DNA of 64,000 bases from Nymphaea colorata. Taxonomy: Eukaryota > Streptophyta > Magnoliopsida > Nymphaeales > Nymphaeaceae. The stretch lies in assembly GCF_008831285.2 (NCBI RefSeq), contig NC_045143.1:17272464-17336463 (forward strand). Direction: 5' to 3'. Below are positions 21,542-62,930 of this stretch, in pieces. The notes beneath the pieces were generated by a model. The model saw nothing but the letters and a program-made list of their open reading frames with translations, had not been told where the DNA came from and ran no database searches. The first letter of the stretch is position 1. Every line of letters begins with the position of its first letter. Position numbers and translations under genes: made by a program.

Positions 21542-21542
<1 letters not shown>

Positions 21543-42720: not shown

Positions 42721-44117
42721 TGCAGCTTATGGGACTGCTCTTGGAGCATTCCCAAGTATAGTGGCAGTTCACTAGACTGCTCTTGCTGTAAGTGCAAGTG
42801 TTACTGCAGTCCACCAGACTGCTTTTTCTGCACCTTGAAAAAATTGCAGTTCACTCAAAAACGTCTCTCCAAGGGAAAATAGATTAATACTATTCTATTG
42901 GTTTTGCTAAATATATACTTACAAAGTATTTTTAAGAACAGCATTGTGTTCTTCGGATGCATTTCATAAAAGTTGCACCATGTTCTTATTTTAAAGAATA
43001 TGATATAATACTTTGTTGTTACATCAATCAATCAAAATCTGAACATAATCATACCATAAGAAAAACAAAAACATGATGTTTTTAAAATATGAATTCTAAA
43101 AATATGTATTCTATAAACATATATAATGGTTTCTTTTTTTATTATACAGCTCGTTAGATTGACACATGGTCTAGATCTAATTAGTGATGCTTTTGTTTTT
43201 TTTATCAAATACCATATTGAGGTGACAAGTGGTCTAGATGTAGTGGTCTCACAAATTCACAATTAAGTGCATTCATGAATTCTCCAATTTAGAATACAAG
43301 ACTTAAAAGAACTTCCATGAGCCATTAACCTTCGGCTGAATTGGAAATATTTCTTCATAAAAAGGGAAATCTTTCCATCTGAGACTTCTTGTTGCTGAAG
43401 AGATCAACAGAGAAAGTTAATGAATGCTAATAATGAGCGACAGTTTAAAATCATTCCCTTCAAAACTAGCACTGCGAGTTGGATTTTGTAGGTTTCTAGC
43501 CACCTGATACACAAGGTAGACACAGCTTTAGAAACAGAATATGTATCCTTCTTTGGAAATGATTGGTTTAGTAGACATATGGTTATGAAATCATAATTGC
43601 TTCAAAATACTTTCATAATTCACTACGGTGGTTGCAACTTGTTCTACCTGCCGAAAATGATCAAGTGAATTAGTTTCATACTTTCATTCATTGCATTTGT
43701 GCTCTTTTACTGATAAAAAGGTGCTTGCTGTTAGCTACGATCCCTCTATTTTTCTCCATGGATCTATATGATGTAGATGTCCCTGTTAAAACTGGTTGAA
43801 AACTTCTACCATGAAAAAAAATTTTCTCTTCAAAAAGTGTCTTGCAAGGAAATTCTACTGTTTTTTTCCTACCTGTTATGTGTGTTTCCTATGGCTACTC
43901 ATAGTGCCAAAGAGCGATGAAGATTGCAGAGCTCAAGAGTGAAAATGCAACAAGACCATCTGTCCTCTATTATTGTGCTCACAAGATCTACAACTCATGA
44001 AATGCTTAAGCTCTCCATCAGCAAGAGCTTTCGCACTTAAGATTCAGAGATCTTCAAGCATATTGTTTTTATGGATTTTGTCTGCAGATGTACCTATTTT
44101 TACCAAAGTTTTCAAGC
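42721..44117. other. Intergenic, nothing recognised
   Basis: AT-rich sequence with no long open frame, up to the left edge of the rearranged Tat complex. Confidence 0.45.
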
Positions 44118-44178
44118 ATAGTTGAATGGAATTTCGAAGAAATTGAAAAGTGAAAGCTTACTGTGACGGTTCACCAGT

Positions 44179-44223
<45 letters not shown>

Positions 44224-44248
44224 GATAGATAGATAGATAGATAAATAG

Positions 44249-44279
<31 letters not shown>

Positions 44280-44568
44280 TGTAGGAGAATGTTCTTTTCT
44301 TGGAAATTCAAGGTTTCTCTATCTAGATAGGATTTATTGACACAAGCACTAACAATAGATACTAGAGTTGTCCCATGAAAGTTATTTCTCTTTTTTAATG
44401 CTCCATTAAAACATAGAGTCCTTGATTTTCAACTGAAACATACAATTCATTGACTAGAGCTTGTAATAAGTCTGGAAAGCCTATTGCTGGTTGTTGTTTC
44501 TGTATGGAAAAAGATATGGTTGATAAGGATAATGATGATACTTGTGATTCAGTCTACTATAGGTCAAT
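44118..44568 (+). repeat. Unit X, flank of LTR B with compound microsatellite
   Basis: Contains (CA)n, (TA)n, (GATA)n and (TA)n in sequence (about 44180-44276), then 290 bp of unique sequence with a short frame starting MTRACNKSGKPIAGCC. It is repeated in reverse complement at 51671-52119, almost base for base. The frame is short and unassigned. Confidence 0.85.
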
Positions 44569-47500
44569 ACCCCACTCCCTTTTCAAGAAGGTCGAAATGC
44601 GAGTCAGCAAAATTCTTTTAAAATTGGGGTTTTGAGAAAATTTTCAAGAGAAAGGGATCCGCTCGTCGGTACGAGGTCCAACCGTTCCTGCCGCCTTTAA
44701 CAGGGGTAATTAGACCAAGGACTAAGGATCATTTGGATCATATACGAGTTATTGATGTAAGTCCTATATGCTTATGCATTGAGGTTTTGGATTCAAGAAC
44801 CGAAATTCATTTTTTTGAATAAATGAATTTGAATATTGGGGGTTTTCAAGTTGGTTTAAAAACCTTTGTTTTGGTGTTATTTGAAACACATAATTCATGA
44901 GGATTTTTGAAGATTTGGAATTGAGTTCTTTGTTGTGAACTCTAGATGATGATGATCATCTTATGATAAAAATTGATTTTGAACTCTTCTTTTGTCAAAT
45001 CATGTGATTTGTAGAATTCATTCTTTTGAAAGAACATGGGTTCCAAATTGTTAGAAAACATGTTGTTTTTCAAATGCACTTTGGCCAAAAGATTATGAAT
45101 GCATTGCTTGTGTTTTCTTTTGAAGTTAAGTGAAGTTTACAAATTCTCATTGCAATATGACTTGGTCATTTTTTGCAACTTAAATTTGAATCACTTAATT
45201 TCTTGAGAATGTGCATGTGGTGCCATTGATTTTGAGTGAAAGTGAATGCATGAAACGAGAATGGAAACTATATGGAAAATTCATTCTTCTCTCTCTCATA
45301 ATCCATCAAGATTCATTCATATGAAACATACATTCTTCACTCCCTCATAATATCTCAAAGTCCGTATTGCACGTCATACAATTTATACATGAAGATTGAT
45401 TAAAATGTAGGACTTTCTCTATATGTGCTCATTATATGATTAAGCACATGAATTAGAGATGTAGTCCATAAGCTTGAGGCTTGACATAAAATTATCAAAA
45501 TGATGAAAATATATAAATGATGTCAAGTTCAATCTTTGAAACGGATGGGAGACATGGATGACATCCACTTTTGTCTCAAAATAGCTAAAAATCAGACCTT
45601 GTGTTGATTTAAATAGCTGAAAATTGTGGACATTGATTCCAATAAGGACTTGTTTCTTAGATAGAAACAATGAGTTTTCCAAATCTATTCAAATTCCAGA
45701 TTTCGTAGTAATGAAATCATCAACTCCTTTGGATGATTCTAGGATGGTTGGTATTTCAAATATGTAAATTTTGATATTCTTGAACCAATTCCTATGAAAC
45801 ATGGTCTGATTTCAACAACATACATACATCTTACGTATGGGTTTGCTGAAATTAAGTAAAAATGAAATGAAAATAATTTATAATCTTGCACTAGAAAAAT
45901 CAATAAAAATGGCCCATTTCCTTAAAGACCGGTTTGGAAACATGTTCCAACCTGATTTTAAGGGAGGAATGTAATTTGTGACAAGAAATTGGATACATAT
46001 ATGTACATATATAACAATGTATACATATATGTACCTTACTTTTCAAAATGAAATTTTATCAAGGGACCGCATGACTCATGAATCATGATGATTCATAGCT
46101 GGGTTCTTTTATGTAGGAAGATTGAGAACTTGTTTCAAATCTTCCCTACTACCCTTGATTAATTGAATTGAAAGACATGAATCGAAATGACTGTGAATAA
46201 GAAAGAAAATAAAACAATACTCAAGCTTTCGTCCATCATTTCGCCATGCAAGGGTGGATCACATTCATAAAAACGTATCCATCCCTTATAGGCATTTTCA
46301 TCATACATGGTGCAGCAAAATCACTCTCTCACCGTGAGATTCTCTCATGGTAGGAAGTTTAAAATGGTATTAAGTTGGTTCCTTTGAAAGGGACGTGGCC
46401 TTGGGGCCAATTTCAAAATTTGATACTTGGGTTCATATTTAAGAAAAAAAAAAACGACATATGTATGCATTATGCATTAACATGTACATTGAAGCGTAGG
46501 TTTCCCTTAGCTGGACATCATTCCCAGCCGTAAGCAAATGAAAATAAACCCTCCCACGAATTGTTGGAATTAAAATAAATCAACAATAAGCTAAAGTAGA
46601 AGAGAAGTGAGTTAAGATCACCTACCTTGCGGTCGGTCTTGATGTTTGTCCTTCGTCTTCACTTGTTTTCTAACCCAAGCAATCCTAAGCAAGAATCCAA
46701 CCGTGGATTCAAGCTTAGCAAAGCTAGAATAAGAAATAGCTTGCTTGCTGAAATTTGGAGTGGTAAAGAGGGCTTCTCACCACGAAAATCCTAAGTAAAT
46801 AAGGGTTCACTTAAGCACCCTAGCTTAGCAAAATCAATGGGGAGAATAGAAGAAAGTGAAGAAGAGAATGGGAGAAAAAGGGGAAGGGGGCTTGGACGAA
46901 CCTCTTCTCTCTTCCTTGGCTTCTCCCTCCTAGCTCCTTAGCTGCAGCAATTTGATAGAATGCTCCAAAATTTCGTCCTCCCCCTTGGTGGCCAAGGGGA
47001 GGTTTATATAGAGGAGGAGGTGGGTTCAACCACCTTCTTAACTCACCTTGGGAACTTGCTTAAGACCTTGGGACTTGTAAAATGAGTTAAATAGACTTTA
47101 AAGGCTCTAATTGACCATTTCTCAGCCTATTTCCACGAGCTAGGTGGGCTGGGCTAGGTTTGGTCAACTTGGGTTCAGACCTAGGTGACCATTTTGACCA
47201 AAATTTTGGACGAAAATGCCCTTGCACAGGGTTTTGCCCTTATTTTGTACTATTTATTTATTTTTTGTTTGAAATCGAGCTTATAAGGTTAAAACCTAGT
47301 TACTAAGCTCCAAATGCCATTGAATTATATAATTAAATTTAAATTTTAATAAAATTTAAAAATTTTATCAAATTTGGTTCGAAAAGGGTATTTTCGTCCA
47401 AAACTTGATTGAAAATGGATTTCAACTGAATCAAACTTTCACTTGAGAAATTCAATTTAAATTTGGTATTTGATTCATGCATTTGACAAATTCAAATGTT

Positions 47501-48392
47501 TATTTGCCTTTCATAAACCATTTTAGGCTTTTTAATCTTAAGTTGACCGCAGAAGGGCAAAATTGTCCAAATTGATCAATTTCGACCAATTGACCAAAGT
47601 CAAAGCTCATTTGCAAGTAGTTTGACTTTATTTGAGGTAATTTGATAAATTTGGGTCAAGAAAGCTCTTAATTGAGCTAAATTGTACTTTGACTGAGTTT
47701 AGTCAAAGTGGGTTTGGTTCGGTCAAAGTCTATTTTCGTCCATTAATTGGATCATGAGACAGACTTACGTTTTGACTATGTTGAGCCCATTGTGACCGAA
47801 CCTAGCTGGAATTGGCACCACATTTGAGTGCACCCGGGTCAAACCTACTTGGATTAAGTAGGTTAGGTGAGTTTGACCAGTCTAGTAATTGCTTCTTTGG
47901 AAATGATTTTTTTCTTTAAGGAGGATCTGGTTAAAGAAGAGAGAGAGACATAAATGTCTCTCTTTTCCTAGGTTTCTCCTTTATTTCTTCTTGAAAATGA
48001 CTTTTCTTCAATTAATTTGAGAGAAAATATTTATTTATTATTTTTTTTTTAAATGGAGGGGGGCATGGCCCCTGGGGAGGGCTCTTGACCACACGGGCTA
48101 GGTGGGGCCCACACGTGGGTCCCACGTAGCATTTTAGACTGAATTAGATCCAATTCTTGGATCTAAGTCAAAATTTGCATTTTGCAATTGGATTTGGATT
48201 TCAAATGACATTTGCAATTGAATTTGGACTCGTAATCCTGCATTGGGATTCGTGTATCGGGTTAAATTCACGATTTGAATCTAATTGTTCTTTAGATTCG
48301 AAATTGGCTTTGAAATTGCAAATTTTCACAATTCTTTTGTGAAATTTTCACATTGCTTCAATTTTGATGTGGAAAAATTTGGGGTGTTAACA
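44569..48392 (-). mobile_element. Tat-type LTR B, 3' LTR of the minus-strand element
   Basis: On the minus strand it starts TGTTAACACCCC directly after the polypurine tract and runs 3.82 kb, but lacks the last 7 bp (GCGAACA) before joining unit X. A TATA-like box is at 47003-47010 (minus). It differs from LTR C at only a handful of positions (for example 45383, 45562, 46751, 47896, 48177), and from LTR A at many more. It has no target duplication because its outer end is truncated. Confidence 0.92.
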
Positions 48393-48412
48393 GATGCCCC
48401 TCTTTGTTGTTA
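48393..48412 (-). other. Tat polypurine tract, copy B
   Basis: On the minus strand AACAACAAAGAGGGGCATC lies directly before the LTR start TGTTAACA. The same tract occurs before LTR C. Confidence 0.8.
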
Positions 48413-49452
48413 AGCAAATTGAATAATTTGCTTAATAGCAAAGATTCACGCACCAAATTTTTGCAAATCGTTTGGAAAATCCATTTTTCAAATGATGTTG
48501 AACCATCCTCGCTCGAGGGGAAATGCTAGGCATAGACCTGAAATAAGAAGATTTTTCTCCATCTCATTGGAGACTTTGTACAGGAATTAATGTTGGTTGA
48601 AAAATTTTGTAATTGTGAAAGTTTTTGCATTTGATGCTTTGAGAAATTTGCCCTCGATGCCTTCTAAACCATTGGCAAGTGCTTTTTCTCTTCTTTTACT
48701 TAGTTTTTCATATACTCGCTTTTGCTTTTGAATTTTGATTTTCTTTTTGAGCCACCCTTCACTCTTGGGAGAAATTCCTCACCACCCCAAAAGCTACTAC
48801 GGAGTTCCACCGCTTTGGCGGTTTTGTGTAGTTTGCTTTGTGTAATATCAAGTCTATCGGGCTTTCTTCTGAACCCTTGTAACAAGCTTTGGGCCGGTAA
48901 CTCCTAGACCAGTTGGCCTCAGGGTACCAAATGTAAAACACTCCCCGGGCTTACTTGCTCGAATTCAGAAGGCTTTAGGAGACTTAATATAAGCAAAATG
49001 TTCATGGATTGCTTTTTAGCTTCACGGCGTAAGCATAGGTCATATGCCCACCCGCGCCTGCTGAGCTTTGAACCAGAGGAACAACTACACTCACCCCGAG
49101 CTCATTGCTCAACTCATTTCGCTTGATAGCTTTTTCTAGCATCTTGCCAAGGTCTTTTAGGTGACAAGACTTTTTCTTATGGCATCTCATGCTAGACCTT
49201 TACAAATGCCGATTGTCGGGACCAACATTAATTACTATACATAAGTCCCTCAATGTCTGTGAAATTTCTTGCCTATTTCAAGACGATGCCCTTGCAATTG
49301 CCCTCAAGACATGGGTTGAGTTTGAAAATTTTGATGCATTTTTGAAACTTTTCCCTAAGGGATACCATGCCCCATAGTTGGTTTGAAAATTGTTACAAAC
49401 GTGCTTATCAAAGCACAACTATTTTGAATTTTTTTTTTTTTGAATTGCAAAT
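48413..49452 (-). mobile_element. Tat 3' non-coding region, copy 1
   Basis: About 1.0 kb between the integrase stop and the polypurine tract. It is repeated at 53281-54321 and, shorter, at 58398-59326. Several 60-residue frames recur in all copies (for example one starting MRCHKKKSCHLKDLG on the minus strand, 49190-49002) but have no family resemblance. Long 3' untranslated regions are known in Tat-group elements. Confidence 0.75.
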
Positions 49453-51213
49453 TCAAGTATAGAATTTTTTGAGATGCAAAGCATTAATTGGAACGGGAAT
49501 TTCAACCCCATCGGCATCAATCAGTCGATAAGAATTGTGAGGTAGAACCTCTTTGACAACATATGGTCCTTCCCAGTTCGGCGCCCATTTTCCTTTGGGT
49601 CTACTCCTGAGTGGAACTATGGATCTTAAAACAAGATCATTTACCTGAAATTTTCTTTCAATGACTGATTTGGCATAATGTCGGGCGACTCTCTTACGAT
49701 AGACTTCGGCATGCTCTGCCGCTTGTAGTCTTTTCTCGTCTAAGAGGTCTAATTGAGTAAGTCTCTTTTTTTGATATTTGTTATTTGGGAGTTCAATGAG
49801 AGCAGCAAATTTCATTGCTGGTTTTTGGACATGTAATGGAAGGACAATTTCCGTTCCATATACTAATTCTGCTGGTGTAGCATTGGTGGGTGTCCGAATT
49901 GTGGTTCGATACGCCCAAAGTGCATTGTGCATTTTCTCGTGCCAATCTCGGCCTGTTTCAACTGTCCTTTCTAAGACACGAATCAAAATCTTGTTGGTTG
50001 CTTCTGCCTGACCATTACCTTGAGGGTAATATGGGGCAGAAAAGTGATGTTGTATTTTGTGTTTATGACAAAGATTGCGCATTTTCTCATTTTTGAAATG
50101 AGTACCGTTATCAGAAACGATATCATGCGGGATGCCAAATCTACACAAAAGATTTTTATGAATGAAGGACACTACGTGTTGTCCTTCGACTGTTTTTAAA
50201 GTGATCGCTTCCACCCATTTGGTGAAGTAATCTGTAGCTGCAAGAAAATACCTGTGTCCATTTGAGGCAGGTGGATTGATTGGACCGACTACGTCGAAGG
50301 CCCACATGGAGAATGGCCATGGTGAGCTGACCGAATGAAGGTACGCTGCTGGAGCATGAATTGATGGTGCATGCAACTGACATTTGATGCATTTCTTGAC
50401 AAATTGGTGACAGTCTCTTTGCATTGTGGGCCAATAGTACCCTGCTCTGACTATCTGCTTGACGAGGGTCTGATACCCTACATGTCCCCCACAAATTCCT
50501 TCATGGGCTTCTTGAATGACTTCTAGTGCCTCATTTGCATCGAGACATCTAGCATATTCTGTGCTGAATCCTCTTCTGTATAGGATGTCGGCTAGAATGA
50601 AATATCTTGAAGACATGTGTCTCAAAACTCTTTGCTCTTTTCGAGACATTTCTGGTGGAAGTGTTCCAGTTTGGAGAAAATCCTTGATGTTCTGATACCA
50701 TGGTGTTTCTCTACTTTCTGCTTGCAACACCTGTTCTGGTATGACAAAAGATGGTTGTTCGAGTCTTCCAACTTCAAAAGATCTGATAGATTCTCCAGGT
50801 TTGAAGGCAATGGTAGAGCCGAAACTGGCTAAACCGTCTACTATTGGGTTAAATTCTCTTTTGACATGTAAGAGTTGACATTCCTCGAACTGTCTTAAGA
50901 GGGAAGCTGCTAACTCTTGATATGGGATCAATTTTTGATCTTTGACTTGCCAATCTCCATTGACCTGACTGACAGCTAAGAGAGAATCTCCAAAAATGCG
51001 AACTCTCTGCACTTTAAATTTGAGCAACATTTTGAGTCCTTGGATTAGGGCCTCGTACTCTGCCACATTATGCGTGCAGGAAAAATTCAATTTGAGAGAG
51101 TAAGGAATCATTTCCCTTTCTAGTGCAACAAGCAATGCATTCATAATCTTTTGGCCAAAGTGCATTTGAAAAACAACATGTTTTCTAACAATTTGGAACC
51201 CATGTTCTTTCAA
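49453..51213 (-). CDS. Tat element second RNase H (C-terminal part) and integrase, copy 1
   Basis: A 586-residue frame. Residues 1-28 are read from LTR fragment E and are not part of the protein; real coding starts at about 51127. It then holds the rest of the second, plant-type RNase H (NVAEYEALIQGLK, FGDSLLAVSQVNGDW, and a closing VDGLASF), the integrase zinc domain (H-H-C-C in HEGICGGH...KKCIKCQ), the integrase core with D (WAFDVVGPI), D (VSDNGTHF) and E (QGNGQAEATNKIL), and a C-terminal domain (VNDLVLRS...NWEGPYVV). Integrase joins the cDNA to host DNA. All visible catalytic residues are kept, but the polyprotein upstream is cut off by the inserted segment, so this is a fragment of the frame that ends at 60169. 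Confidence 0.9.
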   Translation of the reverse strand: MKEHGFQIVRKHVVFQMHFGQKIMNALLVALEREMIPYSLKLNFSCTHNVAEYEALIQGLKMLLKFKVQRVRIFGDSLLAVSQVNGDWQVKDQKLIPYQELAASLLRQFEECQLLHVKREFNPIVDGLASFGSTIAFKPGESIRSFEVGRLEQPSFVIPEQVLQAESRETPWYQNIKDFLQTGTLPPEMSRKEQRVLRHMSSRYFILADILYRRGFSTEYARCLDANEALEVIQEAHEGICGGHVGYQTLVKQIVRAGYYWPTMQRDCHQFVKKCIKCQLHAPSIHAPAAYLHSVSSPWPFSMWAFDVVGPINPPASNGHRYFLAATDYFTKWVEAITLKTVEGQHVVSFIHKNLLCRFGIPHDIVSDNGTHFKNEKMRNLCHKHKIQHHFSAPYYPQGNGQAEATNKILIRVLERTVETGRDWHEKMHNALWAYRTTIRTPTNATPAELVYGTEIVLPLHVQKPAMKFAALIELPNNKYQKKRLTQLDLLDEKRLQAAEHAEVYRKRVARHYAKSVIERKFQVNDLVLRSIVPLRSRPKGKWAPNWEGPYVVKEVLPHNSYRLIDADGVEIPVPINALHLKKFYT

Positions 51214-51670
51214 AAGAATGAATTCTACAAATCACATGATTTGACAAAAGAAGAGTTCAAAATCAATTTTTATCATAAGATGATCATCATCATCTAGAGT
51301 TCACAACAAAGAACTCAATTCCAAATCTTCAAAAATCCTCATGAATTATGTGTTTCAAATAACACCAAAACAAAGGTTTTTAAACCAACTTGAAAACCCC
51401 CAATATTCAAATTCATTTATTCAAAAAAATGAATTTCGGTTCTTGAATCCAAAACCTCAATGCATAAGCATATAAGACTTACACCAATAACTCGTATATG
51501 ATCCAAATGATCCTTAGTCCTTGGTCTAATTACCCCTGTTAAAGGCGGCAGGAACGGTTGGACCTCGTACCGACGAGCGGATCCCTTTCTCTTGAAAATT
51601 TTCTCAAAACCCCAATTTTAAAAGAATTTTGCTGACTCGCATTTCGACCTTCTTGAAAAGGGAGTGGGGT
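51128..51670 (+). mobile_element. Tat LTR fragment E (U5 end, plus orientation)
   Basis: Reverse complement of 44569-45112 of LTR B, with the same missing 7-bp terminus. It forms the left edge of the segment inserted into the RNase H coding sequence. Its inner end (ACAAGCAATGC) is inside the LTR, not at an LTR terminus. Confidence 0.9.
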
Positions 51671-52013
51671 ATTGACCTATAGTAGACTGAATCACAAGTA
51701 TCATCATTATCCTTATCAACCATATCTTTTTCCATACAGAAACAACAACCAGCAATAGGCTTTCCAGACTTATTACAAGCTCTAGTCAATGAATTGTATG
51801 TTTCAGTTGAAAATCAAGGACTCTATGTTTTAATGGAGCATTAAAAAAGAGAAATAACTTTCATGGGACAACTCTAGTATCTATTGTTAGTGCTTGTGTC
51901 AATAAATCCTATCTAGATAGAGAAACCTTGAATTTCCAAGAAAAGAACATTCTCCTACACTAATATATATATATATATATATATATATCTATTTATCTAT
52001 CTATCTATCTATC

Positions 52014-52058
<45 letters not shown>

Positions 52059-52119
52059 ACTGGTGAACCGTCACAGTAAGCTTTCACTTTTCAATTTCTT
52101 CGAAATTCCATTCAACTAT
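51671..52119 (-). repeat. Unit X', inverted copy of unit X
   Basis: Reverse complement of 44118-44568, including the compound microsatellite at about 51963-52058. It joins integrase copy 2 at 52119/52120. Confidence 0.9.
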
Positions 52120-53280
52120 TCTTCAAGATATTTCATTCTAGCCGACATCCTATACAGAAGAGGATTCAGCACAGAATATGCTAGATGTCTCGATGCAAAT
52201 GAGGCACTAGAAGTCATTCAAGAAGCCCATGAAGGAATTTGTGGGGGACATGTAGGGTATCAGACCCTCGTCAAGCAGATAGTCAGAGCAGGGTACTATT
52301 GGCCCACAATGCAAAGAGACTGTCACCAATTTGTCAAGAAATGCATCAAATGTCAGTTGCATGCACCATCAATTCATGCTCCAGCAGCGTACCTTCATTC
52401 GGTCAGCTCACCATGGCCATTCTCCATGTGGGCCTTCGACGTAGTCGGTCCAATCAATCCACCTGCCTCAAATGGACACAGGTATTTTCTTGCAGCTACA
52501 GATTACTTCACCAAATGGGTGGAAGCGATCACTTTAAAAACAGTCGAAGGACAACACGTAGTGTCCTTCATTCATAAAAATCTTTTGTGTAGATTTGGCA
52601 TCCCGCATGATATCGTTTCTGATAACGGTACTCATTTCAAAAATGAGAAAATGCGCAATCTTTGTCATAAACACAAAATACAACATCACTTTTCTGCCCC
52701 ATATTACCCTCAAGGTAATGGTCAGGCAGAAGCAACCAACAAGATTTTGATTCGTGTCTTAGAAAGGACAGTTGAAACAGGCCGAGATTGGCACGAGAAA
52801 ATGCACAATGCACTTTGGGCGTATCGAACCACAATTCGGACACCCACCAATGCTACACCAGCAGAATTAGTATATGGAACGGAAATTGTCCTTCCATTAC
52901 ATGTCCAAAAACCAGCAATGAAATTTGCGGCTCTCATTGAACTCCCAAATAACAAATATCAAAAAAAGAGACTTACTCAATTAGACCTCTTAGACGAGAA
53001 AAGACTACAAGCGGCAGAGCATGCCGAAGTCTATCGTAAGAGAGTCGCCCGACATTATGCCAAATCAGTCATTGAAAGAAAATTTCAGGTAAATGATCTT
53101 GTTTTAAGATCCATAGTTCCACTCAGGAGTAGACCCAAAGGAAAATGGGCGCCGAACTGGGAAGGACCATATGTTGTCAAAGAGGTTCTACCTCACAATT
53201 CTTATCGACTGATTGATGCCGATGGGGTTGAAATTCCCGTTCCAATTAATGCTTTGCATCTCAAAAAATTCTATACTTGA
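52039..53280 (+). CDS. Tat integrase, copy 2 (inverted, 5'-truncated)
   Basis: A 413-residue frame. The first 27 residues come from the (GT)n tract and unit X'; integrase sequence begins at 52120 (SRYFILADILYRRG). It contains the complete zinc domain, the D-D-E core and the C-terminal domain, identical in protein sequence to copy 1. The second RNase H and everything upstream are absent. The start ATG within the microsatellite is accidental and no promoter is evident. Confidence 0.88.
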
Positions 53281-54321
53281 ATTTGCAATTCAAAAAAAAA
53301 AAAATTCAAAATAGTTGTGCTTTGATAAGCACGTTTGTAACAATTTTCAAACCAACTATGGGGCATGGTATCCCTTAGGGAAAAGTTTCAAAAATGCATC
53401 AAAATTTTCAAACTCAACCCATGTCTTGAGGGCAATTGCAAGGGCATCGTCTTGAAATAGGCAAGAAATTTCACAGACATTGAGGGACTTATGTATAGTA
53501 ATTAATGTTGGTCCCGACAATCGGCATTTGTAAAGGTCTAGCATGAGATGCCATAAGAAAAAGTCTTGTCACCTAAAAGACCTTGGCAAGATGCTAGAAA
53601 AAGCTATCAAGCGAAATGAGTTGAGCAATGAGCTCGGGGTGAGTGTAGTTGTTCCTCTGGTTCAAAGCTCAGCAGGCGCGGGTGGGCATATGACCTATGC
53701 TTACGCCGTGAAGCTAAAAAGCAATCCATGAACATTTTGCTTATATTAAGTCTCCTAAAGCCTTCTGAATTCGAGCAAGTAAGCCCGGGGAGTGTTTTAC
53801 ATTTGGTACCCTGAGGCCAACTGGTCTAGGAGTTACCGGCCCAAAGCTTGTTACAAGGGTTCAGAAGAAAGCCCGATAGACTTGATATTACACAAAGCAA
53901 ACTACACAAAACCGCCAAAGCGGTGGAACTCCGTAGTAGCTTTTGGGGTGGTGAGGAATTTCTCCCAAGAGTGAAGGGTGGCTCAAAAAGAAAATCAAAA
54001 TTCAAAAGCAAAAGCGAGTATATGAAAAACTAAGTAAAAGAAGAGAAAAAGCACTTGCCAATGGTTTAGAAGGCATCGAGGGCAAATTTCTCAAAGCATC
54101 AAATGCAAAAACTTTCACAATTACAAAATTTTTCAACCAACATTAATTCCTGTACAAAGTCTCCAATGAGATGGAGAAAAATCTTCTTATTTCAGGTCTA
54201 TGCCTAGCATTTCCCCTCGAGCGAGGATGGTTCAACATCATTTGAAAAATGGATTTTCCAAACGATTTGCAAAAATTTGGTGCGTGAATCTTTGCTATTA
54301 AGCAAATTATTCAATTTGCTT
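53281..54321 (+). mobile_element. Tat 3' non-coding region, copy 2
   Basis: Reverse-complement equivalent of 48413-49452, with the same short recurring frames. Confidence 0.75.
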
Positions 54322-54340
54322 AACAACAAAGAGGGGCATC
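54322..54340 (+). other. Tat polypurine tract, copy C
   Basis: AACAACAAAGAGGGGCATC immediately precedes the start of LTR C. Confidence 0.8.
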
Positions 54341-57300
54341 TGTTAACACCCCAAATTTTTCCACATCAAAATTGAAGCAATGTGAAAATTTCACAAAAGA
54401 ATTGTGAAAATTTGCAATTTCAAAGCCAATTTCGAATCTAAAGAACAATTAGATTCAAATCGTGAATTTAACCCGATACACGAATCCCAATGCAGGATTA
54501 CGAGTCCAAATTCAATTGCAAATGTCATTTGAAATCCAAATCCAATTGCAAAATGTAAATTTTGACTTAGATCCAAGAATTGGATCTAATTCAGTCTAAA
54601 ATGCTACGTGGGACCCACGTGTGGGCCCCACCTAGCCCGTGTGGTCAAGAGCCCTCCCCAGGGGCCATGCCCCCCTCCATTTAAAAAAAAAATAATAAAT
54701 AAATATTTTCTCTCAAATTAATTGAAGAAAAGTCATTTTCAAGAAGAAATAAAGGAGAAACCTAGGAAAAGAGAGACATTTATGTCTCTCTCTCTTCTTT
54801 AACCAGATCCTCCTTAAAGAAAAAAATCATTTCCAAGGAAGCAATTACTAGACTGGTCAAACTCACCTAACCTACTTAATCCAAGTAGGTTTGACCCGGG
54901 TGCACTCAAATGTGGTGCCAATTCCAGCTAGGTTCGGTCACAATGGGCTCAACATAGTCAAAACGTAAGTCTGTCTCATGATCCAATTAATGGACGAAAA
55001 TAGACTTTGACCGAACCAAACCCACTTTGACTAAACTCAGTCAAAGTACAATTTAGCTCAATTAAGAGCTTTCTTGACCCAAATTTATCAAATTACCTCA
55101 AATAAAGTCAAACTACTTGCAAATGAGCTTTGACTTTGGTCAATTGGTCGAAATTGATCAATTTGGACAATTTTGCCCTTCTGCGGTCAACTTAAGATTA
55201 AAAAGCCTAAAATGGTTTATGAAAGGCAAATAAACATTTGAATTTGTCAAATGCATGAATCAAATACCAAATTTAAATTGAATTTCTCAAGTGAAAGTTT
55301 GATTCAGTTGAAATCCATTTTCAATCAAGTTTTGGACGAAAATACCCTTTTCGAACCAAATTTGATAAAATTTTTAAATTTTATTAAAATTTAAATTTAA
55401 TTATATAATTCAATGGCATTTGGAGCTTAGTAACTAGGTTTTAACCTTATAAGCTCGATTTCAAACAAAAAATAAATAAATAGTACAAAATAAGGGCAAA
55501 ACCCTGTGCAAGGGCATTTTCGTCCAAAATTTTGGTCAAAATGGTCACCTAGGTCTGAACCCAAGTTGACCAAACCTAGCCCAGCCCACCTAGCTCGTGG
55601 AAATAGGCTGAGAAATGGTCAATTAGAGCCTTTAAAGTCTATTTAACTCATTTTACAAGTCCCAAGGTCTTAAGCAAGTTCCCAAGGTGAGTTAAGAAGG
55701 TGGTTGAACCCACCTCCTCCTCTATATAAACCTCCCCTTGGCCACCAAGGGGGAGGACGAAATTTTGGAGCATTCTATCAAATTGCTGCAGCTAAGGAGC
55801 TAGGAGGGAGAAGCCAAGGAAGAGAGAAGAGGTTCGTCCAAGCCCCCTTCCCCTTTTTCTCCCATTCTCTTCTTCACTTTCTTCTATTCTCCCCATTGAT
55901 TTTGCTAAGCTAGGGTGCTTAAGTGAACCCTTATTTACTTAGGATTTTCGTGGTGAGAAGCCCTCTTTACCACTCCAAATTCCAGCAAGCAAGCTATTTC
56001 TTATTCTAGCTTTGCTAAGCTTGAATCCACGGTTGGATTCTTGCTTAGGATTGCTTGGGTTAGAAAACAAGTGAAGACGAAGGACAAACATCAAGACCGA
56101 CCGCAAGGTAGGTGATCTTAACTCACTTCTCTTCTACTTTAGCTTATTGTTGATTTATTTTAATTCCAACAATTCGTGGGAGGGTTTATTTTCATTTGCT
56201 TACGGCTGGGAATGATGTCCAGCTAAGGGAAACCTACGCTTCAATGTACATGTTAATGCATAATGCATACATATGTCGTTTTTTTTTTTCTTAAATATGA
56301 ACCCAAGTATCAAATTTTGAAATTGGCCCCAAGGCCACGTCCCTTTCAAAGGAACCAACTTAATACCATTTTAAACTTCCTACCATGAGAGAATCTCACG
56401 GTGAGAGAGTGATTTTGCTGCACCATGTATGATGAAAATGCCTATAAGGGATGGATACGTTTTTATGAATGTGATCCACCCTTGCATGGCGAAATGATGG
56501 ACGAAAGCTTGAGTAGTGTTTTATTTTCTTTCTTATTCACAGTCATTTCGATTCATGTCTTTCAATTCAATTAATCAAGGGTAGTAGGGAAGATTTGAAA
56601 CAAGTTCTCAATCTTCCTACATAAAAGAACCCAGCTATGAATCATCATGATTCATGAGTCATGCGGTCCCTTGATAAAATTTCATTTTGAAAAGTAAGGT
56701 ACATATATGTATACATTGTTATATATGTACATATATGTATCCAATTTCTTGTCACAAATTACATTCCTCCCTTAAAATCAGGTTGGAACATGTTTCCAAA
56801 CCGGTCTTTAAGGAAATGGGCCATTTTTATTGATTTTTCTAGTGCAAGATTATAAATTATTTTCATTTCATTTTTACTTAATTTCAGCAAACCCATACGT
56901 AAGATGTATGTATGTTGTTGAAATCAGACCATGTTTCATAGGAATTGGTTCAAGAATATCAAAATTTACATATTTGAAATACCAACCATCCTAGAATCAT
57001 CCAAAGGAGTTGATGATTTCATTACTACGAAATCTGGAATTTGAATAGATTTGGAAAACTCATTGTTTCTATCTAAGAAACAAGTCCTTATTGGAATCAA
57101 TGTCCACAATTTTCAGCTATTTAAATCAACACAAGGTCTGATTTTTAGCTATTTTGAGACAAAAGTGGACGTCATCCATGTCTCCCATCCGTTTCAAAGA
57201 TTGAACTTGACATCATTTATATATTTTCATCATTTTGATAATTTTATGTCAAGCCTCAAGCTTATGGACTACATCTCTAATTCATGTGCTTAATCATATA

Positions 57301-58172
57301 ATGAGCACATATAGAGAAAGTCCTACATTTTAATCAATCTTCATGTATAGATTGTATGACGTGCAATACGGACTTTGAGATATTATGAGGGAGTGAAGAA
57401 TATATGTTTCATATGAATGAATCTTGATGGATTATGAGAGAGAGAAGAATGAATTTTCCATATAGTTTCCATTCTCGTTTCATGCATTCACTTTCACTCA
57501 AAATCAATTGCACCACATGCACATTCTCAAGAAATTAAGTGATTCAAATTTAAGTTGCAAAAAAATGACCAAGTCATATTGCAATGAGAATTTGTAAACT
57601 TCACTTAACTTCAAAAGAAAACACAAGCAATGCATTCATAATCTTTTGGCCAAAGTGCATTTGAAAAACAACATGTTTTCTAACAATTTGGAACCCATGT
57701 TCTTTCAAAAGAATGAATTCTACAAATCACATGATTTGACAAAAGAAGAGTTCAAAATCAATTTTTATCATAAGATGATCATCATCATCTAGAGTTCACA
57801 ACAAAGAACTCAATTCCAAATCTTCAAAAATCCTCATGAATTATGTGTTTCAAATAACACCAAAACAAAGGTTTTTAAACCAACTTGAAAACCCCCAATA
57901 TTCAAATTCATTTATTCAAAAAAATGAATTTCGGTTCTTGAATCCAAAACCTCAATGCATAAGCATATAAGACTTACACCAATAACTCGTATATGATCCA
58001 AATGATCCTTAGTCCTTGGTCTAATTACCCCTGTTAAAGGCGGCAGGAACGGTTGGACCTCGTACCGACGAGCGGATCCCTTTCTCTTAAAAATTTTCTC
58101 AAAACCCCAATTTTAAAAGAATTTTGCTGACTCGCATTTCGACCTTCTTGAAAAGGGAGTGGGGTGCGAACA
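54341..58172 (+). mobile_element. Tat-type LTR C (3.83 kb, complete)
   Basis: Starts TGTTAACACCCC and ends GGGGTGCGAACA. A TATA box (TATATAAA) at 55723-55730 places the transcription start near 55.76 kb, giving a U3 of about 1.4 kb and R-U5 of about 2.4 kb. A donor-like GCAAG|GTAGGT lies at 56103-56112. It is preceded by a polypurine tract, like a 3' LTR, yet followed by the first bases of a primer-binding site (GATGGC), like a 5' LTR, so it sits between two truncated element bodies. Confidence 0.93.
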
Positions 58173-58397
58173 GATGGCAAATCAGTCATTGAAAGAAAAT
58201 TTCAGGTAAATGATCTTGTTTTAAGATCCATAGTTCCACTCAGGAGTAGACCCAAAGGAAAATGGGCGCCGAACTGGGAAGGACCATATGTTGTCAAAGA
58301 GGTTCTACCTCACAATTCTTATCGACTGATTGATGCCGATGGGGTTGAAATCCCCGATCCAATTAATGCTTTGCATCTCAAAAAATTCTATACTTGA
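58164..58397 (+). pseudogene. Tat integrase C-terminal scrap, copy 3
   Basis: From 58179 the sequence is the last ~72 codons of integrase (KSVIERKFQVNDLVLRS ... LHLKKFYT), with one V-to-D change (EIPDPIN). It is fused directly to the GATGGC that follows LTR C. Gag, protease, RT, RNase H and most of the integrase have been deleted between primer-binding site and this point. A GCA/CA overlap at the junction is compatible with microhomology-mediated deletion. Confidence 0.88.
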
Positions 58398-59326
58398 ATT
58401 TGCAATTCAAAAAAAAAAAAAATTCAAAATAGTTGTGCTTTGATAAGCACGTTTGTAACAATTTTCAAACCAACTAAGGGGCATGGTATCCCTTAGGGAA
58501 AAGTTTCAAAAATGCATCAAAATTTTCAAACTCAACCCATGTCTTGAAGACAATTGCAAGGGCATCGTCTTGAAATAGGCAAGAAATTTCACAGACATTG
58601 AGGGACTTATGTATAGTAATTAATGTTGGTCCCGACAATCGGCATTTGTAAAGGTCTAGCATGAGATGCCATAAGAAAAAGTCTTGTCACCTAAAAGACC
58701 TTGGCAAGATGCTAGAAAAAGCTATCAAGCGAAATGAGTTGAGCAATGAGCTCGGGGTGAGTGTAGTTGTTCCTCTGGTTCAAAGCTCAGCAGGCGCGGG
58801 TGGGCATATGACCTATGCTTACGCCGTGAAGCTAAAAAGCAATCCATGAACATTTTGCTTATATTAAGTCTCCTAAAGCCTTCTGAATTCGAGCAAGTAA
58901 GCCCGGGGAGTGTTTTACATTTGGTACCCTGAGGCCAACTGGTCTAGGAGTTACCGGCCCAAAGCTTGTTACAAGGGTTCAGAAGAAAGCCCGATAGACT
59001 TGATATTACACAAAGCAAACTACACAAAACCGCCAAAGCGGTGGAACTCCGTAGTAGCTTTTGGGGTGGTGAGGAATTTCTCCCAAGAGTGAAGGGTGGC
59101 TCAAAAAGAAAATCAAAATTCAAAAGCAAAAGCGAGTATGTGAAAAACTAAGTAAAAGAAGAGAAAAAGCACTTGCCAATGGTTTAGAAGGCATCGAGGG
59201 CAAATTTCTCAAAGCATCAAATGCAAAAACTTTCACAATTACAAAATTTTTCAACCAACATTAATTCCTCTACAAAGTCTCCAATGAGATGGAGAAAAAA
59301 CTTCTTATTTCAGGTCTATGCCTAGC
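58398..59326 (+). mobile_element. Tat 3' non-coding region, copy 3 (truncated)
   Basis: Matches copies 1 and 2 up to GGTCTATGCCTAGCATT, then breaks into leader sequence of opposite orientation; the last part of the region, the polypurine tract and the LTR are missing. Confidence 0.8.
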
Positions 59327-59852
59327 ATTGACTCCTCCAAGGGTTTTCTAGATTTGGGCTCTCCATTTCTCCTTGTTCACCCAGCGATATACCGGGACTA
59401 TTGTCCGTTTCGGTACTAATGGGGGGACTTCTCAGTCCAATTGGGTGGTCCAGTTGTAAGGCTATATCTTGGACTAATGTCCTAGAAATAGCCCGGCAAC
59501 ATGATGACCGGGATATGATATAGGTAAGGATTTGTTTTTCAAAATTCATGAGAAGATGCAAAATAGATGGCTCTATTGCATACATTCCTAAGAGATAGAT
59601 TTGAAATTTTGAGAGCATACATGGGCTGCATACAATCCTTAAATTGAGGAGGGGTAGGATAAATTGAAATGAATAAGGTTCATGAAATCTCCTCAATGTA
59701 CACTACATGATGTCGGTATGCATTTTTGTGAGTTTAATTTTTTTTTTTTTTTTTTTTTGTGCAATTGATGTCCGACATTGGTGAAAATAACTCATATATG
59801 ATCCAAATAAGTCTTTAGACAAACAATGACGGGTCCCACCGGGTGTGCCATC
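59327..59852 (-). mobile_element. Tat leader and primer-binding site, copy D
   Basis: Minus-strand leader following LTR fragment D. The primer-binding-site region reads GATGGCACACCCGGTGGGAC (59833-59852), one base different from copy A. It extends about 275 bp beyond what remains of the copy A leader, and a frame here (59322-59696 minus) contains no Gag motif. It ends abruptly at 59327 against the opposite-strand 3' region. Confidence 0.75.
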
Positions 59853-60168: not shown

Positions 60169-61929
60169 AATGAAAAGTATCCCAATGCCTGCCCCAGCTG
60201 TGCTCTTAGATCCATCAAAGTACATCTCCCAAATCGGCTCTGGTTCAGTTGTCAGGATTTGCTCATCTGGAAAATCATCATTTGTTCTAATTTCTTCATA
60301 TAGAGGAAAATCTGCCAATTGGTCTGCAATGGCTTGCCCCTTGATTGATTTTTGTGACACATATTCCAAATCATATTGCATCAGCAAAACCTGCCACTTT
60401 GCTATCCTTCCATTCAGAAATGGCTGTTCGAGGATATATTTGAGTGGATTAAGTTTGGATAAAATTTTAACTTCACAAGCCAATAGATAATGCCTTAATT
60501 TTTGACACATCCACACCAAGGCTAAGCAAGTTTTTTCCATGTGCGAGTAGTTCTTTTCATACTGCACAAATGTCTTACTGATGTAATAAATGGCATGTTC
60601 TATTCGGCATCCTTCTTCATATTGAGCCAGAAATCCACCACAGGTTGAATCGTTAACTGTGATGTAAAGGAGTAGAGGTTCCCCTAAAATTGGAGGTTTT
60701 AAAATTGGTGGGCAAAGAAGATACTTCTTGATCTTTTCGAATGAGGCTTGACATTCATGCCCCCATTCAAATTTGACTCCTTTCCGCAGTAAATGGTTGA
60801 AGGGTTCGCATCTCATGGCGAGATTAGATATAAACCTTCTGATTGATTGAATTCTGCCTTGCAAGCTGCGTAGCTCCTTAAGATTTGTTGGGGGTGACAT
60901 TTCGATGATCGCCTTTGCTTTGGAAGGATCCATCTCGATTCCCTTTTGGCTGACCATAAATCCCAAAAGCTTACCGGATTCCACACCAAATACACATTTT
61001 TGTGGATTCAATCTAAGTTTGTATTGTAAGAGTCTATCAAAAACTTGAGAGAGAATGTTGATGTGATTCTCCCTTGTTTTTGACTTAATTAGTAGATCAT
61101 CTACATATGCATTCATGATTTGACGTATTTGGTCATGAAAAATAGCTGCCATAGCCCTTTGATATGTTGCCCCAGCGTTCTTCAAACCAAATGGCATTAC
61201 TGTATAGCAGAAGGTACCCCATGGGGTTGTAAATGATGTTTTGGCTTGATCTTGAGCTTCCAACTTAATTTGGTTATAACCAGAATATCCATCCATAAAG
61301 GAGAACATAGCGTGACCTGCGGTACTGTCTACCAACAAGTCAATGTTTGGAAGTGGGTAGTCATCCTTTGGTGTAGCCTTATTCAAATCTCTGAAATCGA
61401 TGTAGAGCCGAATTTTGCCATTTTTCTTTGGGACTACCACAATGTTTGCTAACCATTCAGGATAGTCGATTGTTCGGATGAACCCTGCCTTTAGTAGGTC
61501 TTCCAGGCCTTCCTTAACTTGCCCCTCAAGACGAGGGTCTAGTTTCCTCAACTTTTGTTTGATTGGCTTGCATTCTGGTTTCAATGGTAGTCGATGCTCG
61601 ACTAATTTTGTATCAAGTCCTGGCATGTCCTCATAAGTCCACGCAAAGGCTTCTTGATGCTTTTTGAGGAAATCTATCAACTCTTTTCTTTCTTCTGCTG
61701 AGAGACTTGTTCCAATTTGCAAAATCTTTGGACTCTCTTCCGTGCCAATGTTAATTTCCTCAATCGGATCATTAATCAGAGGTGACGGTTGATCTTGCTT
61801 TCTCATTTGGATGAACTCTGGACATTCGGCCTCAGTGAGTTCTGGATTTATCTCCTTAAAAGCTTTTGATGTTTGATCCTCAAATGCCATCCTAAAGATT
61901 GTAAAGAAGTTAGATGAAATTTGAGACAT
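60055..61929 (-). CDS. Tat element reverse transcriptase and RNase H (truncated)
   Basis: A 624-residue frame. RT occupies about residues 150-330: IRLYIDFRDLNKATPKDDYP, the catalytic Asp in FMDGYSGYNQI (D213), MPFGLKNAGATYQ, and YVDD at 275-278. The connecting RNase H follows (DSTCGGFLAQ, HMEKTCLALVW, then ILSKLNPLKYI, where related elements usually have DPLKY, so an acidic residue appears lost). After a tether (KSIKGQAIADQLADF) the second RNase H starts (WEMYFDGSKSTAGAGIGILF) and is cut at 60168. Residues from about 589 on are LTR sequence. The second RNase H domain plus the very long LTRs place it in the Tat/Ogre group. Its continuation is at 51127. Confidence 0.92.
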   Translation of the reverse strand: MSQISSNFFTIFRMAFEDQTSKAFKEINPELTEAECPEFIQMRKQDQPSPLINDPIEEINIGTEESPKILQIGTSLSAEERKELIDFLKKHQEAFAWTYEDMPGLDTKLVEHRLPLKPECKPIKQKLRKLDPRLEGQVKEGLEDLLKAGFIRTIDYPEWLANIVVVPKKNGKIRLYIDFRDLNKATPKDDYPLPNIDLLVDSTAGHAMFSFMDGYSGYNQIKLEAQDQAKTSFTTPWGTFCYTVMPFGLKNAGATYQRAMAAIFHDQIRQIMNAYVDDLLIKSKTRENHINILSQVFDRLLQYKLRLNPQKCVFGVESGKLLGFMVSQKGIEMDPSKAKAIIEMSPPTNLKELRSLQGRIQSIRRFISNLAMRCEPFNHLLRKGVKFEWGHECQASFEKIKKYLLCPPILKPPILGEPLLLYITVNDSTCGGFLAQYEEGCRIEHAIYYISKTFVQYEKNYSHMEKTCLALVWMCQKLRHYLLACEVKILSKLNPLKYILEQPFLNGRIAKWQVLLMQYDLEYVSQKSIKGQAIADQLADFPLYEEIRTNDDFPDEQILTTEPEPIWEMYFDGSKSTAGAGIGILFITPKQRFLNQLENPQYSNSFIQKNEFRFLNPKPQCISI

Positions 61930-62048
61930 TGTATATAGAAGTAATTTGCATTTGTCATTGTATTTTTGAAGGTATTACAAAATGAAGACACTTGGTCTAT
62001 TTGAGTACAATGACGACAAAATGACAAAATGATGGCGGATTTGTTGAT
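61930..62048 (-). other. Protease-RT junction with acceptor-like sequence
   Basis: About 120 bp separate the protease stop from the RT frame, which is in a different frame. Just before the internal ATG of MAFEDQ the minus strand reads CTTCTTTACAATCTTTAG|G, a good acceptor-like site. Ogre elements are known to splice an intron between protease and RT. No donor with matching phase was found, so splicing is only a possibility. Confidence 0.35.
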
Positions 62049-62930
62049 TCAAATTGATGGTGAACATCCGCCTATGGTATTGCTCTTGACGAAAGGTACT
62101 GGCTTGAATTCTACCTCAACATCCACTTTTTCATAGCTTTGGCACCCCAAGGCTTGAGTGCCTCGTTGTCCTGTCAAGGTAACTGGTTCCAAGATTCCAT
62201 TTTCATGTTTGCCAAGGCCAGTAAATGACTGGTAGCCATGGCGTATGAGTAAATCCAATCCTTTCTCATTCTGGCAGAATTTCTTGAACAACGGATGACT
62301 TTTGTAACTTGTTTCAAGTTTGGTACCCCTTTTCACCCATACCTGTTTCTTTGGTTTCTGAATGGCCAATCTGCTAAGACTTTGAGATATTTCTTCCTCT
62401 TTGCAGACTCGAATACTGGGTACCTCAATTGTATATGTTGGTACCGGAATCATTGGGTGTACAAGCCGACTTTCCCTATCCTCTGCATAGATGGTTATAG
62501 AATTCCCGTTGTGAGTCCATTTGACACACTGATGTAGAGTGGAGGGAACTGCATTGGTAGCATGAATCCATGGCCTGCCAAGCAACAAGTTGAAGGAGGG
62601 TTCTATATCCACCACATGAAATAAAACCCGATGATACGTCTCAGAAATATTCAAATCCAGACATATGCATCCTAGGCATGGTTGTCCTGTCCCGTCATAT
62701 CCATGGATGAAAATTTTAGATGGAGTATAGTCAGCCTGTCTTATGCCCAACTCACGAGTTGTTTGTTGTGGACAGATGTTCAGGCTTGCTCCACCATCAA
62801 TTAAAACGTGGGAGACTCTGGTGCCCCTTGTCTCTATCACTATGTGCAAGGCGTCATTGTGCGATGCACCTCCAGTTGGTAGATCTTTATCAGAGAATAT
62901 GATCGGACTATTTTCACATAATTCAAAAGC
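62049..62930 (-). CDS. Tat element aspartic protease region
   Basis: In frame with gag and separated from it by the single TGA at 62931-62933. The sequence after that stop reads FELCENSPIIFSDKDLPTGG, then HNDALHIVIETRG, then the protease active-site region VLIDGGASLNICP (catalytic Asp in IDGGAS) and LGRPWIH, the usual downstream flap/partner motif. The first ATG is at 62849, but the upstream sequence is typical of the family, so readthrough or a mutated sense codon is more likely than a separate start. It matures the Gag-Pol polyprotein. The C-terminal half includes a G-patch-like GLGKHENG. It ends at 62049. Confidence 0.85.
   Translation of the reverse strand, partial: AFELCENSPIIFSDKDLPTGGASHNDALHIVIETRGTRVSHVLIDGGASLNICPQQTTRELGIRQADYTPSKIFIHGYDGTGQPCLGCICLDLNISETYHRVLFHVVDIEPSFNLLLGRPWIHATNAVPSTLHQCVKWTHNGNSITIYAEDRESRLVHPMIPVPTYTIEVPSIRVCKEEEISQSLSRLAIQKPKKQVWVKRGTKLETSYKSHPLFKKFCQNEKGLDLLIRHGYQSFTGLGKHENGILEPVTLTGQRGTQALGCQSYEKVDVEVEFKPVPFVKSNTIGGCSPSI

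What the first reader, a model, noticed from the sequence alone, without database searches (positions are those of the whole stretch)
44118..58172. Near-identical 6-kb palindrome made of Tat element halves
Arms 44569-50613 and 52120-58172 are reverse complements, with identical integrase proteins and only scattered LTR differences. A second inverted pair (44118-45112 with 51128-52119) is nested across the spacer. Ordinary nested insertion gives complete LTR ends and target duplications; here the breakpoints lie inside LTRs and coding sequence, which points to template switching, inversion between elements, or a mis-joined assembly.
Basis: partly seen in the sequence, partly recalled or inferred. 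Interest (0 to 1): 0.75.

Follow-up and report, generated by a model that had tools for sequence, protein, structure and literature searches.

The report
Retrotransposon broken and patched with itself
A plant jumping gene was interrupted by a 9-kb patchwork made mostly of copies of its own two ends, largely backwards, forming a near-perfect 6-kb palindrome; this is most likely a scar of error-prone DNA repair, and the locus might also make a hairpin RNA that silences the whole family.

Summary
The palindrome is real in the assembly: arms 44569-50613 and 52120-58165 differ by 12 substitutions and 1 indel, and a second inverted pair (44118-45111/51128-52119) crosses the spacer. It is not a nested insertion. 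One Tat-type element (E1, minus strand, 44569-70667, running past the window) carries a 9,041-bp insert (51128-60168) in its archaeal-type RNase H region, with ends inside LTR fragments. The insert is a mosaic: (1) E1's own LTR end plus its host flank, inverted; (2) E1's integrase-3'UTR-LTR, inverted (the palindrome arm); (3) a fragment of another family copy; (4) E1's own 5' LTR end and leader. The five new junctions share 6, 8, 2 and 0 bp, and one has 6 unmatched bases. Each occurs once in the 408-Mb genome; the uninterrupted site occurs 154 times. Best model: serial, mostly local template switching during break repair. Fold-back reads and overlap mis-joins fit poorly (two symmetry centres, polarised transition-rich substitutions, junctions with at most 8 shared bp). 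But the assembly around is flawed (gaps at both contig ends, 16.6-kb terminal redundancy), so reads must confirm. A bolder, untested reading is a hairpin-RNA source like Mu killer.

The parts
44569..48392 (-). LTR A: 3' LTR of E1, lacking its last 7 bp; left arm of the palindrome (outer part)
   Evidence: end compared with the complete LTR ends
44114..44568 (.). F: host flank of E1's truncated 3' LTR; junction J5 at 44568/44569 is a 3.6-kb host deletion with 4-bp microhomology relative to the E1-free copy on the same scaffold
48393..51127 (-). E1 3' part: rest of archaeal-type RNase H, integrase, 3' UTR, polypurine tract; palindrome arm to 50613
   Evidence: ORF and Pfam; polypurine tract read by eye
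51128..51670 (+). A': inverted copy of the last 543 bp of E1's truncated LTR A (insert segment 1)
   Evidence: carries J5
51671..52119 (-). F': inverted copy of host flank F, joined at J4 (52119/52120, 0 bp shared) to integrase (insert segment 1, continued)
   Evidence: junction found once
52120..54340 (+). B internal: integrase and 3' UTR copied from E1, inverted (1 substitution in 2,221 bp); right palindrome arm
54341..58172 (+). LTR B: full-length LTR, nearest to LTR A among scored copies; followed by 7 nt of primer-binding site (58173-58179)
   Evidence: junction J3 found once
58174..59329 (+). E: integrase C-terminus and 3' UTR from a different family member (insert segment 3; its first 6 bases overlap the primer-binding-site match); J2 at its right end shares 8 bp with the next segment
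59330..60168 (-). D: leader, primer-binding site and last ~316 bp of LTR, nearest to E1's own 5' end (insert segment 4); J1 at 60168 shares 6 bp with the target
60169..64000 (-). E1 5' part: RT and RNase H (Pfam) preceded by gag- and protease-like ORFs (named by eye); continues beyond the window to the 5' LTR, which ends at 70667 (extended coordinate)
7882..11962 (-). Duplicate of E1's leader and 5' LTR (copy C) at the left end of the contig; with the flank to 24515 it equals 66586-83207 with 0 substitutions

Best explanation
A chromosome break (or broken replication fork) inside the archaeal-type RNase H region of retrotransposon E1 was repaired by DNA synthesis that jumped several times between nearby templates. 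Read left to right, the growing end copied (1) E1's truncated 3' LTR end and its host flank backwards, (2) jumped back and copied E1's integrase-3'UTR-LTR backwards, making the palindrome, (3) switched to another family member's integrase end and 3' UTR, (4) switched strand through an 8-bp match to E1's own 5' leader and LTR end, and (5) rejoined the other side of the break through a 6-bp match. Shown from sequence: the segments, their nearest sources among scored copies, order, orientation and junction lengths, and that the insert post-dates the J5 deletion because A' carries it. Inferred: a break as the trigger, one event rather than several, and the polymerase pathway (MMBIR/FoSTeS-like or alternative end joining).
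For: Source tests: B internal differs from E1 by 1/2,221; E1 scores 4002 bits and the next scored copy 3934 (40 of 1107 candidates scored). LTR B is nearest to LTR A (6841 bits), then E1's 5' LTR (6782) and its duplicate (6774); every other scored copy is at or below 6622 (38 of 1376 scored). D's nearest relative is E1's 5' end (1500 bits, next 1491, a small margin, 40 of 1254 scored), and it shares T at 44626 with E1's 5' LTR, absent from A, A', B and the 4 family copies covering it. F' contains the locus-specific J5; outside this locus F is matched over its whole length only by the E1-free copy. Junctions: 6 bp (J1), 8 (J2), 2 (J3), 0 (J4), 6 unmatched bases (J6); 6 or more and 8 or more occur in 0.25% and 0.04% of random junctions. 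Target: in the four family copies where it was read the site is CCCTTTCTGGTGTAATGAA and little or nothing of it is lost. At up to 2 mismatches the five junctions each occur once and the uninterrupted site 154 times.
Against: J4 has no shared base and J6 has 6 unmatched bases, so end joining is needed too. Segment E is not local: E1's copies rank 25-26 of the 40 scored for it. LTR B runs exactly to its end plus 7 nt of primer-binding site, as unprocessed cDNA would, and those bases cannot come from LTR A, whose end is deleted. A' and B share two derived bases (44755 G, 44764 T) that A lacks, which needs a later gene conversion or a several-step history. The genome searches score only 38-40 candidates each, so a nearer relative could be missed.
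Confidence: 0.6

Rival explanations
1. Capture of reverse-transcribed DNA: incomplete cDNAs of E1 and of another family member, possibly with a read-through transcript into F, were joined end to end into a break in E1.
For: B has the shape of the 3' half of a linear cDNA: integrase-3'UTR-polypurine tract-full LTR plus 7 nt of primer-binding site; [quoted passage not shown] A'-F'-B-E all have the same polarity. E comes from another family copy. Differences between A and B cluster in the inferred R-U5 part: 9 in 2,412 bp against 3 in 3,633 bp, p=0.017 (the boundary is inferred from a TATA-like motif).
Against: B lacks the variants private to E1's 5' LTR (44626, 45024, 45165), which normal reverse transcription of E1 RNA would put in R-U5. 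The 8-bp J2 joins opposite strands. F' needs a read-through transcript. B's internal part is nearest to E1 by a wide margin.
Confidence: 0.15
2. Assembly or read artefact: the palindrome does not exist in the plant.
For: The contig carrying it (7882-83207) lies between two 100-N gaps and its ends repeat each other for 16.6 kb with 0 substitutions and 14 indels; further near-identical copies of the surroundings sit inverted on the same scaffold. No reads were available.
Against: A fold-back read gives one centre of symmetry and a small spacer; here there are two centres and a 1,506-bp spacer. The arms differ by 12 substitutions (9 transitions) and 1 indel, polarised to both arms (A 4, B 8), while the differences between the two contig ends, which I take for consensus errors, are 14 of 14 indels. 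Overlap mis-joins need long shared sequence; the junctions share at most 8 bp.
Confidence: 0.2
3. Ordinary nested insertion of a second element in opposite orientation, later damaged by recombination or deletion.
For: The insert holds a full LTR with internal sequence on its left side; nesting of LTR elements is common in plants and in some families prefers the same family (PMC6911290, passages).
Against: Both ends of the insert lie inside LTR fragments, not at LTR termini; no clear target duplication; the insert contains E1's own host flank and J5; one segment runs in the opposite direction.
Confidence: 0.03

Closest known systems
Complex templated insertions at double-strand breaks in yeast, including inverted pairs from one locus (PMC11724301, passages)
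   Same: Several fragments joined at a break, same-locus fragments in inverted orientation, microhomology at junctions
   Different: The yeast inserts described in the passages are tens to hundreds of bp; this one is 9 kb and templated mainly from the broken element itself; inferred from sequence only
MMBIR/FoSTeS-type complex rearrangements
   Same: Serial jumps, inverted and direct segments, short shared bases, local templates plus one distant template
   Different: Known mostly from human disease and yeast (recalled; only listings seen); here inside a plant LTR element
Template-switching complex LTR elements of Triticeae (Sabot and Schulman 2007, PMC1950507, whole text)
   Same: Fused copies of one family thought to arise by switching templates
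   Different: Those are proposed to arise during reverse transcription and keep outer LTRs and target duplications; this has neither, and its segments run in both orientations
Capture of retrotransposon cDNA at breaks (PMC10802722, passages; PMC4516963, search listing)
   Same: Retroelement fragments inserted at a break; LTR end with extra primer-binding-site bases
   Different: Most segments here come from the broken locus itself, including host flank
Mu killer of maize (PMC3440606, start of abstract in a search listing)
   Same: Partial inverted duplication of a transposon that could give a several-kb hairpin transcript
   Different: Derived from a DNA transposon and known to silence; no RNA data exist here

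Membership tests
Tat lineage of Ty3/gypsy LTR retrotransposons | Second, archaeal-type RNase H between native RNase H and integrase (retrovirus-like arrangement in PMC10508981) | tested here: met
   RVT_1, RT_RNaseH, then RVT_3 (PF13456), H2C2, rve across the split pol; definition from passages of PMC10508981
Tat lineage of Ty3/gypsy LTR retrotransposons | RT phylogeny placing the element in Tat | not tested
   No tree of plant elements was built
Nested LTR-retrotransposon insertion | Complete LTR termini at both ends of the insert | tested here: not met
   Insert ends lie inside LTR fragments
Nested LTR-retrotransposon insertion | 4-6 bp target-site duplication | tested here: inconclusive
   Left side reads AGTGCA where intact copies read GGTGTA (4 of 6 match); the right GGTGT is also present in the LTR, so it cannot be told from microhomology
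Reverse-transcription template-switch complex (Sabot-Schulman type) | Flanking target duplication, matching outer LTRs, shared internal LTR between two internal regions | tested here: not met
   No outer LTRs on the insert; segments in both orientations
Serial template-switching repair (MMBIR/FoSTeS-like) | Several templated segments in both orientations with mostly local sources | tested here: met
   Three of four segments nearest to E1 or its flank, one ectopic (38-40 candidates scored per genome search for the element pieces)
Serial template-switching repair (MMBIR/FoSTeS-like) | Microhomology at junctions | tested here: inconclusive
   8, 6 and 2 bp at three of five junctions, 0 bp at one, 6 unmatched bases at one
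Captured cDNA at a break | Termini or variants found only in cDNA | tested here: inconclusive
   7 nt of primer-binding site after LTR B fits; B lacks the 5'-LTR variants expected in R-U5
Hairpin silencing locus (Mu killer-like) | Transcript across both arms and small RNAs acting on the family | not testable with these tools
   No RNA data

The most novel reading that the evidence does not exclude
The repair scar has become a family-wide silencing locus. A transcript from E1's 5' LTR would run through antisense integrase-LTR (arm B), a 1.5-kb loop and sense integrase-LTR (arm A): a hairpin with a stem of about 6 kb that matches a family with at least 154 uninterrupted copies of the target site. 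Such an RNA could feed small RNAs against the whole Tat family, as proposed for Mu killer against MuDR. If so, a retrotransposon's faulty self-patching would be a natural route by which a plant gains an RNA 'vaccine' against a young, burst-type LTR family.
Probability: 0.12. Interest if true: 0.7.

Novelty: new member of a known kind. Interest (0 to 1): 0.42.

Why it matters
It is a base-resolved case of a plant LTR retrotransposon used as its own repair template at multi-kb scale, with a nearest source for every segment and the uninterrupted site known from sister copies. It shows how palindromes can arise from LTR elements without transposition, and it gives a concrete locus at which the idea that such palindromes start hairpin-driven silencing of LTR families can be tested. 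If reads do not support it, it is a warning about assemblies rich in such elements.

Tried and rejected
Rejected: simple fold-back read (two symmetry centres, 1,506-bp spacer, polarised substitutions); nested insertion (ends inside LTRs); inversion between two elements (E1 present on both sides, segments are extra copies); B as a sister element's copy; B as the second unit of the tandem duplication (the duplicated stretch has 0 substitutions in 16.6 kb, LTR A and B have 11).

My idea that B's R-U5 was copied from E1's 5' LTR by reverse transcription failed: B lacks that LTR's private variants. tRNA scan of the window with ARAGORN: 0 genes. Folding F' alone (z -2.65) says nothing on function; it is dominated by a simple repeat. 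The order of the A/A'/B variants was not fully resolved, and no age was computed. PMC10462705 and PMC6097286 (passages) were looked at for parallels and not used as support.

Rows dropped: of ten 1.2-kb LTR stretches fetched, six aligned to LTR A (L036, L038, L039, L040, L042, L044) and four did not (L037, L041, L043, L045). L040 aligned over 196 bp only and was left out, which used five. For internal sequence the six loci L003-L008 were used. In one search the target site was found in four of these six (L003-L006); L007 and L008 are held in the opposite orientation and the forward-strand string search returned nothing for them.
Full report
WHAT IS THERE. The inverted repeats are as described: 44569-50613 against 52120-58165 (6,046 columns, 12 substitutions, 1 indel), and 44118-45111 against 51128-52119 (2 substitutions and a 2-bp microsatellite indel). 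The integrase proteins of both arms are identical over 387 positions. The two pairs have different centres of symmetry, so this is not one fold-back.

THE HOST ELEMENT. On the minus strand the window holds gag- and protease-like ORFs (named by eye, no search), RT and RNase H down to 60169, an interruption, then the rest of an archaeal-type RNase H, integrase, 3' UTR, polypurine tract and an LTR (51127 to 44569). Pfam finds RVT_1 and RT_RNaseH before the break and RVT_3, H2C2 and rve after it, the retrovirus-like Tat order described in PMC10508981 (passages). The next 10 kb of the scaffold hold E1's leader and its 5' LTR, ending at extended coordinate 70667. E1 spans 26,099 bp including a 9,041-bp insert.

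THE EMPTY SITES. Inverted on the same scaffold, about 160 kb to the right, lies a second copy of the surroundings (97.6-99.9% by segment) without E1. There the flank of E1's 5' LTR reads TTTG/ATCAGTGTCC, and F runs on into 3.6 kb of host DNA that is missing beside E1. So J5, where E1's 3' LTR lacks 7 bp, is a 3.6-kb deletion with a 4-bp match. Whether this copy is an allele or a paralogue is open. For the insert, the four family copies in which the site was read have CCCTTTCTGGTGTAATGAAAAG, and that site occurs 154 times in the genome at up to 2 mismatches. The insert sits in it with little or no loss.

WHERE THE INSERT CAME FROM. (1) A'-F' (51128-52119) is E1's truncated LTR end plus host flank, with J5 inside it. 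F is matched over its whole length elsewhere only by the E1-free copy (97%), with partial matches of 74-87% on five other contigs. It was therefore copied from this locus after the deletion. (2) B (52120-58179): its internal part differs from E1 by 1 base in 2,221, and E1 scores 4002 bits against 3934 for the next scored copy; its LTR is nearest to LTR A, then to E1's 5' LTR. (3) E (58174-59329) differs from A by 9 substitutions and 1 indel, one of them at the junction, carries the common family bases at 49301, 49303, 49374, 49493 and 49498 (four family copies each), and E1's own copies rank 25-26 of 40 for it, E itself being first, so it came from elsewhere. (4) D (59330-60168) is nearest to E1's own 5' end by a small margin (1500 against 1491 bits) and shares a base with it that A, A', B and four family copies lack. 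These four searches scored 38-40 of 791-1376 candidates, so 'nearest' means nearest among those scored.

JUNCTIONS. Shared bases: J1 6, J2 8, J3 2, J4 0; J6 has 6 bases matching neither parent end exactly, though 4 of 6 agree with the target. Six or more shared bases are expected in 0.25% and eight or more in 0.04% of random junctions drawn from these sequences. Each of the five is found once in the genome at up to 2 mismatches.

IS IT REAL? For: 12 substitutions, 9 of them transitions, with one indel. With E1's 5' LTR and family copies as outgroups, 4 are new in A and 8 in B (four of the LTR sites rest on the duplicate of E1's 5' LTR alone). The differences between the two redundant contig ends, which I take for consensus errors, are 14 of 14 indels. 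The junctions share too little to be overlap errors. Against: the contig is bounded by 100-N gaps at 7782-7881 and 83208-83307, its ends repeat each other over 16.6 kb with no substitution, and reads were not available. The repeat may be a real, very recent tandem duplication of about 58.7 kb whose joint holds a 1.4-kb Copia-like piece (36246-37650, named by eye), or an assembly loop. In the assembly the insert junctions are present once.

MECHANISM. The path left to right is: E1 3' end backwards, flank, jump back, E1 integrase to LTR backwards, another family copy, strand switch to E1's 5' end forwards, rejoin. The E1 sources lie within about 7 kb of the break, measured on the element without the insert. 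This is what serial template switching during break repair would give; yeast shows inverted same-locus insertions at breaks (PMC11724301, passages) and fold-back synthesis (PMC10622511, abstract). The strongest counter-sign is B's right end: a complete LTR plus 7 primer-binding-site bases, as in unprocessed cDNA; in yeast 40 of 56 wild-type 3' LTR inserts carried nucleotides present only in cDNA (PMC10802722, passages). But B lacks the variants that E1's 5' LTR would have contributed. A mixed origin, with cDNA as one donor, stays possible. A-B differences lean toward the U5 end (mean position over the arm p=0.002, within the LTR p=0.036; LTR against internal p=0.067, not significant). R-U5 against the rest gives p=0.017, and other cut points give p from 0.001 to 0.157. 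This hints at a mosaic LTR B; the R boundary rests on a TATA-like motif, not on mapped RNA.

UNRESOLVED. A' and B share 44755 G and 44764 T, which A, D, the E1 5' LTR and five family copies lack. Either A' and B exchanged sequence later, or A was converted back.

PRECEDENT. Complex LTR elements thought to be made by template switching are known from Triticeae, rice and maize (PMC1950507, whole text), and recombination among family members during reverse transcription from Arabidopsis (PMC5668417, passages). The former keep outer LTRs and target duplications. Among the titles and abstract starts listed (20 of 137; 15 of 17; 8 of 13; 10 of 12) I saw no plant case of an LTR element patched with inverted copies of itself; that speaks only for these listings of an open-licence library.

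CONSEQUENCE. E1's pol is split before integrase. Read from its 5' LTR, the locus would give antisense then sense integrase-LTR with a 1.5-kb loop. Mu killer, a partial inverted duplication of MuDR, is proposed to silence by such a hairpin (PMC3440606, start of abstract in a listing). Nothing here tests this.

Noticed in passing
window 7882-24515 and extended 66586-83207: The contig holding the palindrome starts and ends with the same 16.6 kb (0 substitutions, 14 single-base indels), between two 100-N gaps: a very recent tandem duplication of about 58.7 kb or an assembly loop.
   Followed up: partly
C6:17425573-17483341 (extended 153110-210878): Further inverted copies of the same surroundings (97.6-99.9%) on the same scaffold, two of them overlapping across another 100-N gap; one has a 5.7-kb insertion the others lack. 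Looks like unmerged haplotypes placed in series, or an inverted segmental duplication.
   Followed up: partly
window 36246-37650: A 1.4-kb Copia-like fragment (named by eye) lies exactly between 36245 and 37651, which are joined to other sequence in the other copies; it looks like filler at a duplication joint.
   Followed up: partly
window 24104-25261 and 39752-40747: Two polygalacturonase-inhibitor-like leucine-rich-repeat ORFs in opposite orientation (about 84% identical DNA), with more related stretches further along the scaffold (naming recalled, not searched).
   Followed up: no
window 33794-35071: ORF resembling a plastid NAD malate dehydrogenase (naming recalled), so the element lies in a gene-bearing region.
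   Followed up: no
extended -6548 to 61 (left of and at window start): Self-comparison suggests a tandem array of units of about 245 bp, 80-94% alike, just left of the window.
   Followed up: no
LTR A (44569-48392) and E1's 5' LTR (duplicate at 8136-11962): About 17 substitutions separate E1's 5' LTR from both A and B, against 4 seen only in A; most are not polarised. An uneven count for two LTRs of one insertion, so E1 may be a recombinant.
   Followed up: no
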